Assembly: GCA_016928995.1 (NCBI GenBank) | Contig: JAFGJS010000029.1 | Location: 1 to 10,734 of the forward strand | DNA: 10,734 nt | Source: Candidatus Sumerlaeota bacterium | GTDB lineage: Bacteria > Sumerlaeota > Sumerlaeia > JAFGJS01 | Direction: 5' to 3' | Part shown: in pieces, positions 9,573-10,734 of the stretch | Numbering within the stretch: the stretch's first letter is position 1 | Layout of the letters: every line of letters begins with the position of its first letter | The notes under the pieces: generated by a model | The model's database searches: none | What the model was told of the DNA's origin: nothing | The model's input: only the letters and a program-made list of their open reading frames with translations | Position numbers and translations under genes: made by a program

Positions 9573-9590
9573 AGGAACTTCTAATATTCA

Positions 9591-9682
9591 ACGCAAAGAA
9601 GCAAAGGCGCAAAGAACCGAAATTTTATCTAATGTAAATGCAATGATTGAACTCTTTGTGCGCTCTGAGCCTTCGTGTGAGA
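9591..9682. repeat. Degenerate CGCAAAG-type intergenic repeat pair
   Basis: The left arm is a run of related units (CGCAAAG at 9592-9598, GCAAAGGCGCAAAG at 9601-9614). The right arm (9654-9682, CTTTGTGCG then GAGCCTTCGTGTGAG) is its loose inverted counterpart, about 40 nt away. From memory, repeats of this kind flank small GxxExxY-type genes in many environmental bacteria; no such gene is between or beside the arms here. It looks like a solitary or decayed unit. Confidence 0.45.
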
Positions 9683-9736
9683 ATTTCAATGATTAAAGGT
9701 AGCCATAAGGGCATCACTCGCTCTGTTGATAATCCC

Positions 9737-9832
9737 TCTCGTACTCGTACTCGATTTTATCTCTATCGCGCCCGTTTGGAAATCACATTCATTCTCATCC
9801 TCGTTCTCGAACAAATCGTGATACTCGATAAC
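9737..9832. repeat. Low-complexity CTCGTA/CTCGTT hexamer-like tract
   Basis: Short imperfect units built on CTCG recur: CTCGTACTCGTACTCG (9738-9753), CTCATCCTCGTTCTCG (9794-9809) and ACTCGATAACG near the end. On the minus strand this is purine-rich and reads as acidic E/D/N stretches, but frames are interrupted. I see no gene in it. It extends the repeat-rich nature of 9573-9990. Confidence 0.4.
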
Positions 9833-9990
9833 GTCTTTAATGCGGAGGTTAACTCCAGAAACTCAGCAAACATTTTTTGGCGTTGATCGACGTTGCTCGA
9901 GCGCAGCAATTTCGCTTGAGCGTTTAAGGAGCAGGAAGTTTGCGGCATCATGTTCTCCTGGTCTGATCATACATATTTGGGCTTAACTTA
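9833..9990. other. AT-rich spacer with no supported gene
   Basis: The only open frame of note (minus strand, starting at 9951) has two start ATGs but no ribosome site. It resembles nothing I know and runs into the repetitive tract. A short GGAG-GTTAA-CTCC palindrome (9844-9856) and TTGCTCGAGCGCAGCAA (9893-9909) are minor stems. The left boundary of the IS110-like element probably lies in or just after this stretch, but IS110 elements lack the terminal repeats that would mark it. Confidence 0.35.
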
Positions 9991-10000
9991 GTGCCATTCT

Positions 10001-10105
10001 TGTGTGTTTTAATGCATAAGATCGTTTGAAAGGCAGATCCTCCCGCGGGTAAATTTGTGGGTGTTTTCGCCAAAACACACAGCTCACCCACAGGAGGATG
10101 GTCCA
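10001..10105 (+). ncRNA. Candidate structured leader of an IS110-family element, possibly bridge-RNA-like
   Basis: The stretch immediately 5' of the transposase-like start is rich in complementary segments. ATCCTCC (10037-10043) pairs with GGAGGAT (10093-10099). TGTGGGTG (10056-10063) pairs with CACCCACA (10085-10092). GTGTTTT (10061-10067) pairs with AAAACAC (10072-10078). A competing 10-nt perfect match joins TGTGTGTTTT (10001-10010) to AAAACACACA (10072-10081). IS110-group elements are known to encode a bridge RNA in their left non-coding end, so position and structure fit. Its limits, promoter and guide loops cannot be set by eye. Confidence 0.35.
10037..10099 (+). promoter_or_regulatory. 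Stem that hides the transposase ribosome binding site
   Basis: The strong AGGAGG (10092-10097), 8 nt before ATG 10106, is the right arm of the outer stem formed with ATCCTCC (10037-10043). A second 8-bp stem lies directly beneath it. If this folds in the message, ribosome access would be low. Such sequestration is known for several insertion sequences as protection against read-through expression. Confidence 0.4.
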
Positions 10106-10174
10106 ATGAATATTGGAACTCAATATTACTCAATCGGCATGGATGTCCACAAGAAGATTCTTTACTTCCGATAA
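10106..10174 (+). pseudogene. IS110-family transposase, N-terminal fragment only
   Basis: ATG 10106, with an ideal Shine-Dalgarno, reads MNIGTQYYSIGMDVHKKILYF and stops one codon later (TAA 10172-10174). The Y-x-S-I-G-M-D-V-H-K-K pattern is the start of the RuvC-like DEDD domain of IS110-family transposases, and its Asp is the first catalytic acid. An intact enzyme would have well over 300 residues, so nearly everything is missing. The rest is replaced by the 3' part of an Rhs gene on the other strand. Together with the structured leader, it marks the surviving left flank of an element. The identification rests on a short motif. Confidence 0.55.
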
Positions 10175-10734
10175 AACGCTATCAGTTAATCCATCAGGAA
10201 TTCTATTGCGACCATTGATCGAGATTTTAACCTTGTCACCAATATTATTGACTCCTCTTACTGCGTCTTCCCCTGCTTGTCCTACTCTTACAGGACCAGC
10301 CCCACCATGGACAGGTGGACTTGCCCCTCCACTAACAGAAGGACTTGAAGCCTTAAATAAGCCCCCCATTTTTGCGACTTTGAGCGCCCCAAACACAAAT
10401 CCGGCGGCTTCCAGCACATCTCCCCCAACCTGGAACGCCGTCGTGTACCACGGCTGGATGTCGTAATTCACCGAAGCATACGCCGTCTGCTGGCCGATGC
10501 TCAGCGGTGAAGTGCCCACGGAAATCATGCCGAAGGCGATATGCCCAAACCAGTTCTCTGGTAAGGCATGGCCCCACCAGTCTAACACAAAATCGCGCAG
10601 CTCGCCTGCTGTGCCTAAACCGAAAAACCATTCGCCTGACGGCCCCCAGCCCAGGGGATCGCCAAAATTGATCGGATCGCCGTTGCAGTATTCGTACCAA
10701 TTCAATCCGCCGTTGAAACCGACAGGATCCGCAC
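10130..10734 (-). CDS. Rhs-family polymorphic toxin, C-terminal part, toxin domain cut short
   Basis: The frame is open from the window end (200 residues) to TGA 10130-10132. It starts inside the Rhs core end motif: DPVGFNGGLNWYEYCNGDP, then INFGDPLGW, the usual junction after which each Rhs protein carries a variable C-terminal toxin. A pre-toxin region follows with hydrophobic helices, then a Gly/Pro-rich linker. The last domain reads VGQAGEDAVRGVNNIG...GRNRIPDGLTDSVLSEVKN. I take this for a restriction-endonuclease-fold toxin in which Asp of PDG and E-x-K of SEVK would be the metal-binding core. Homologues, as I recall them, continue for some 40-50 residues; here the chain ends in NLLVDIHAD, encoded antisense to the IS110 start. 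No immunity gene follows. The toxin is probably inactive. Confidence 0.75.
   Translation of the reverse strand, partial: ADPVGFNGGLNWYEYCNGDPINFGDPLGWGPSGEWFFGLGTAGELRDFVLDWWGHALPENWFGHIAFGMISVGTSPLSIGQQTAYASVNYDIQPWYTTAFQVGGDVLEAAGFVFGALKVAKMGGLFKASSPSVSGGASPPVHGGAGPVRVGQAGEDAVRGVNNIGDKVKISINGRNRIPDGLTDSVLSEVKNLLVDIHAD

What the first reader, a model, noticed from the sequence alone, without database searches (positions are those of the whole stretch)
10130..10175. Rhs toxin gene whose 3' end is fused antisense to an IS110 transposase start
The minus strand encodes an Rhs nuclease-like domain up to SEVKN; the plus strand across the same bases encodes MDVHKKILYF. Both look genuine on their own side, so the junction lies within about 10150-10165, where the two share sequence. 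This suggests an insertion followed by deletion, which removed the toxin's C-terminus, the expected immunity gene and almost all of the transposase. The alternative is that RNA-guided IS110 recombination created the junction.
Basis: partly seen in the sequence, partly recalled or inferred. Interest (0 to 1): 0.6.

Follow-up and report, generated by a model that had tools for sequence, protein, structure and literature searches.

The report
Truncated Rhs gene abutting IS110 remnant
Near the end of a metagenome contig, a bacterial Rhs toxin gene is cut off halfway through its nuclease domain and joined, back to front, to the first 17 codons of an IS110 transposase gene; this is probably ordinary rearrangement debris from a mobile element, not a new mechanism.

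Summary
On the minus strand an Rhs protein enters a Tox-REase-7 nuclease domain and leaves it right after SEVKN, at 47 of 84 profile positions. A full homologue from the same phylum runs about 55 residues further. On the plus strand an IS110-type start, with a Shine-Dalgarno and ATG at 10106, reads up to HKK at 10156. A degenerate GMDVHKK pattern hit only two of 386 genomes; the other hit starts an IS110 transposase. The two homologies meet at about 10156/10157, so the tail LLVDIHAD is antisense IS110. One deletion running from inside the IS110 ORF into the Rhs 3' end explains this arrangement. Loss of an immunity gene is inferred, not shown. Bridge-RNA recombination is disfavoured, because the break lies about 17 codons inside the transposase, not at an element end. 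A chimeric join cannot be excluded: no intact IS110 or second copy is in the draft genome, no reads were available, and the contig ends 577 bases later inside the Rhs gene.

The parts
10157..10734 (-). 3' part of an Rhs-family toxin gene; its 5' part lies beyond the contig end
   Evidence: TIGR03696 Rhs core at residues 1-28; PF15649 at residues 151-193
10154..10282 (-). First half of a Tox-REase-7 nuclease domain (profile 1-47 of 84), ending after SEVKN
   Evidence: hmmscan; alignment with the complete domain in L064
10130..10156 (-). Chance tail LLVDIHAD plus stop: the antisense strand of the IS110 start, read in frame from Rhs
   Evidence: ORF listing; homology to Tox-REase-7 stops before it
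10106..10156 (+). First 17 codons of an IS110-family transposase (MNIGTQYYSIGMDVHKK)
   Evidence: Motif, position and start context; pattern test in 386 genomes with the only other hit an IS110
10092..10097 (+). Shine-Dalgarno AGGAGG of the IS110 ORF, in the 3' arm of a predicted hairpin with 10036-10043
   Evidence: sequence; fold, z -2.1
10001..10105 (+). Putative IS110 left-end leader (place of a possible bridge RNA); inverted pair 10001-10010 / 10072-10081
   Evidence: the repeat finder, shuffle test of that chosen pair 0 of 2000, fold; left limit inferred
9980..10002 (+). Motif also found at C83 and, as a variant, C56 of this genome and in four other genomes of the phylum, in some cases just after the stop of transposase-like reading frames (IS4-like, by eye); possible insertion target

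Best explanation
This is a rearrangement scar. An IS110 element lay downstream of an Rhs toxin gene, in the opposite orientation. A deletion, probably illegitimate or with a few bases of microhomology, removed everything from about codon 18 of the transposase through the right end of the element, the intervening DNA and the last half of the toxin's nuclease domain. What is left is the IS110 left end with 17 codons, joined to a toxin gene that now reads 8 chance codons and stops. The truncated toxin is probably inactive. The two truncations and their meeting point are shown; the deletion, its order, the inactivity and the loss of an immunity gene are inferred.
For: The Tox-REase-7 match stops at 47 of 84, while homologues from the same phylum and elsewhere continue 50 or more residues past E[VI]KN. 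IS110-type start with Shine-Dalgarno; GMDVHKK is otherwise found only in an IS110 among 386 genomes. After HKK the reading ILYFR* does not follow the IS110s seen (TIAYC, TVVWC, NWVIT). After EVKN the reading LLVDIHAD does not follow the toxins seen (VKTLS, VNKQG). Both homologies end at the same base. The orientation needs one deletion only. There are no Ns at the junction.
Against: No intact IS110 in the draft, no second copy of the leader and no immunity gene or toxin remainder was found to show the parent structures. The contig stops 577 bases past the junction, in an Rhs gene, a kind that assemblers find hard. Only a short piece identifies the IS110.
Confidence: 0.66

Rival explanations
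1. The junction is a chimera made in library preparation or assembly of the metagenome; the two loci are not neighbours in any cell.
For: The window is a whole contig of a 161-contig draft. One break joins two unrelated pieces 577 bases from a contig end. Neither piece occurs elsewhere in the genome to test it.
Against: A de Bruijn assembler needs shared words of about 21 bases or more (general knowledge), and by homology the two sides share at most a few bases at the break; there are no scaffold Ns. The order fits a simple deletion.
Confidence: 0.25
2. IS110 bridge-RNA-guided recombination made the junction directly.
For: An IS110 start and a leader that folds somewhat better than shuffles are present.
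Against: IS110 recombination centres on a core at the ends of the element, outside the recombinase gene (PMC11208160). This break is inside the gene, about 50 bases after the start codon.
Confidence: 0.03
3. The plus-strand MDVHKK is chance and there is no IS110; the Rhs gene simply has a diverged short end.
For: The piece is 17-22 aa and matches no profile by itself, and no DNA relative of the leader was found.
Against: By base counting, the chance expectation of the codon pattern in the genomes searched is well below one, and the only other hit is an IS110 at the same place in its protein. Shine-Dalgarno and start are well placed.
Confidence: 0.06

Closest known systems
IS110 family (PF01548/PF02371 recombinase with bridge RNA, e.g. 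IS621)
   Same: N-terminal (Y)xIGMDVHKK motif just after a good start; structured leader ahead of the ORF
   Different: Only 17 codons remain; right end, catalytic residues beyond the first motif and the C-terminal domain are missing
Rhs polymorphic toxins with a Tox-REase-7 (PF15649) C-terminal nuclease
   Same: End of the Rhs core, then a GQAGEDAV...IPDGL...EVKN half domain
   Different: Domain ends at 47 of 84; the remaining 37 or so positions are missing and no recognisable immunity gene lies next to it

Membership tests
Rhs polymorphic toxin, Tox-REase-7 | Rhs-associated core domain | tested here: inconclusive
   TIGR03696 positions 48-75 of 76, E 1.1e-6, 29.1 bits against a cut-off of 32.5; the rest of the core lies beyond the contig end, so the match is cut
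Rhs polymorphic toxin, Tox-REase-7 | Complete C-terminal toxin domain | tested here: not met
   PF15649 1-47 of 84, below the cut-off; the homologue L064 is complete
Rhs polymorphic toxin, Tox-REase-7 | Adjacent immunity gene | tested here: inconclusive
   No minus-strand ORF longer than 62 aa lies wholly between 9573 and 10133; the small ones overlap repeats or the leader; no immunity family search was run on them
IS110 | N-terminal DEDD/RuvC motif with the first Asp (GMDVHKK) | tested here: met
   Motif and pattern specificity
IS110 | Full PF01548 and PF02371 domains | tested here: not met
   Only 17 codons; no PF01548 match over the cut-off in the whole draft genome
IS110 | Left-end bridge RNA with guides matching donor and target | tested here: inconclusive
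   10-nt complement of 10001-10010 at 10072-10081, but no match to the left flank beyond 4 nt; no Rfam hit

The most novel reading that the evidence does not exclude
IS110 elements lie beside the 3' ends of other Rhs toxins as well and repeatedly shuffle or inactivate toxin tips in this phylum.
Probability: 0.03. Interest if true: 0.5.

Novelty: new member of a known kind. Interest (0 to 1): 0.12.

Why it matters
It documents the decay of a polymorphic toxin by a mobile-element-associated rearrangement in a poorly sampled phylum, and warns annotators that the toxin's last eight residues and the IS110 'start' come from one joint. Little depends on it beyond that.

Tried and rejected
DNA searches for the leader and start in plasmids, phages, 40 genomes of the phylum and 386 wider genomes gave nothing real; the weak hits showed no IS110 start on inspection. 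Leader 20-mer and degenerate IS110-start patterns in viral contigs: none. The 22-aa piece was too short for the search for related loci and matched nothing in plasmids. Rhs tail in plasmids: none. Rhs protein elsewhere in the phylum: none at E 1e-5. The 27-base junction in viral contigs: none. Test whether IS110s of the phylum sit at the 9980-10002 motif: none do.

Full report
Setting. The window is contig 71, complete, of a draft genome of 4.55 Mb in 161 contigs, estimated 92% complete. It is the only genome held for its family and order, in a phylum with 40 genomes held. The contig ends at 10734 inside an open reading frame on the minus strand.

The toxin side. The minus-strand frame 10732-10130 starts with the end of an Rhs-associated core and continues into Tox-REase-7 (PF15649). 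The match covers profile positions 1-47 of 84 and scores 23.3 bits, under the cut-off of 25, as a half domain would. The best homologue in the phylum, L064, reads GDAGEKAV...RIPDFL...GEVKNVKTLSLTAQIRDD... and has 55 residues after EVKN; ours reads GQAGEDAV...RIPDGL...SEVKN and then LLVDIHAD and stop. A second homologue, L065, also continues. The toxin domain is therefore cut after EVKN, base 10157. The aligner scattered a few tail residues among L064's C-terminal half; I do not count these as homology. The retained half holds the PD and ExK elements expected of this fold, but the missing part should prevent a stable domain; that is inference.

The IS110 side. ATG 10106 has AGGAGG eight bases upstream and begins MNIGTQYYSIGMDVHKKILYFR*. 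The fragment is too short for profile searches. As a test of the motif, the degenerate codon pattern for GMDVHKK was searched in 386 genomes: two hits, this window and G228, where it starts an IS110-type transposase with similar spacing (MQQINQKEFKDQEFYIGMDVHKKNWVITLRN). That locus was recognised as IS110 by its sequence and length, not by a profile. IS110s of this phylum found by profile start similarly. The residues ILYF do not resemble what follows HKK in these, and they are exactly the antisense of EVKN. The IS110 side thus ends at about 10156. A few bases of uncertainty remain because the lost sequences are unknown.

Mechanism. In left to right order an IS110 on the plus strand, followed by the end of a toxin gene on the minus strand, would give this structure after one deletion from about codon 18 of the transposase into the toxin domain. 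Polymorphic toxins typically have a linked immunity gene (PMC3482391), so one may have been lost; nothing here shows it. IS110 recombination takes place at core sequences outside the recombinase gene and is scarless (PMC11208160), so a joint at codon 17 is not its expected product. I give about one in four to a laboratory or assembly chimera. The pieces share too little sequence for a usual graph error, but the draft offers no second copy, reads were not available, and the contig breaks soon after.

Left limit of the IS110 piece. Bases 9980-10002 match C83 exactly over 23 bases. Variants of this motif occur in C56 and in four more genomes of the phylum, in some cases directly after the stop of transposase-like frames and often near contig ends. 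The name IS4-like was judged by eye, not by a profile. If the IS110 left end starts after CT at 9999-10000, then 10001-10010 (TGTGTGTTTT) would be the donor's right side, and its exact complement lies at 10072-10081 in the leader (0 of 2000 shuffles). However, the pair was chosen after it was seen, and the same bases also pair with a nearer partner in the fold. I treat this as a hint only. The leader pairs its Shine-Dalgarno with 10036-10043 in the predicted fold.

Verdict. The most likely cause is ordinary, a deletion scar between a mobile element and a toxin gene, with a substantial chance of artefact.

Noticed in passing
window 9575-9708: A dispersed repeat of about 130 bases (AACGCAAAGACGCARAGRCGCAAAGAACCGAA...AATGCAATGATTGAAATCTTTGTGCGC) with about 15 copies at 73-86% identity in this genome; no marked RNA fold.
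   Followed up: partly
window 9738-9811: A second dispersed repeat family (CTCGTACTCGTACTCGATTTTATC... and GGAAATCACAYTCGTTCTCGTCCTCGTTCTCG), about 20 places, its two halves sometimes found in opposed orientation to each other.
   Followed up: partly
window 9980-10002; L022-L040: CTTAACTTAGTGCCATTC-like motif shared over several genomes of the phylum, followed by variable GGGACWGTCCCC-like bases; in some loci it follows the stop of transposase-like frames, in others no transposase was recognised.
   Followed up: partly
L063 1453-2524: An IS110-type transposase in G228 split over two reading frames (1453-1986 and 1901-2524); frameshift or decay.
   Followed up: no
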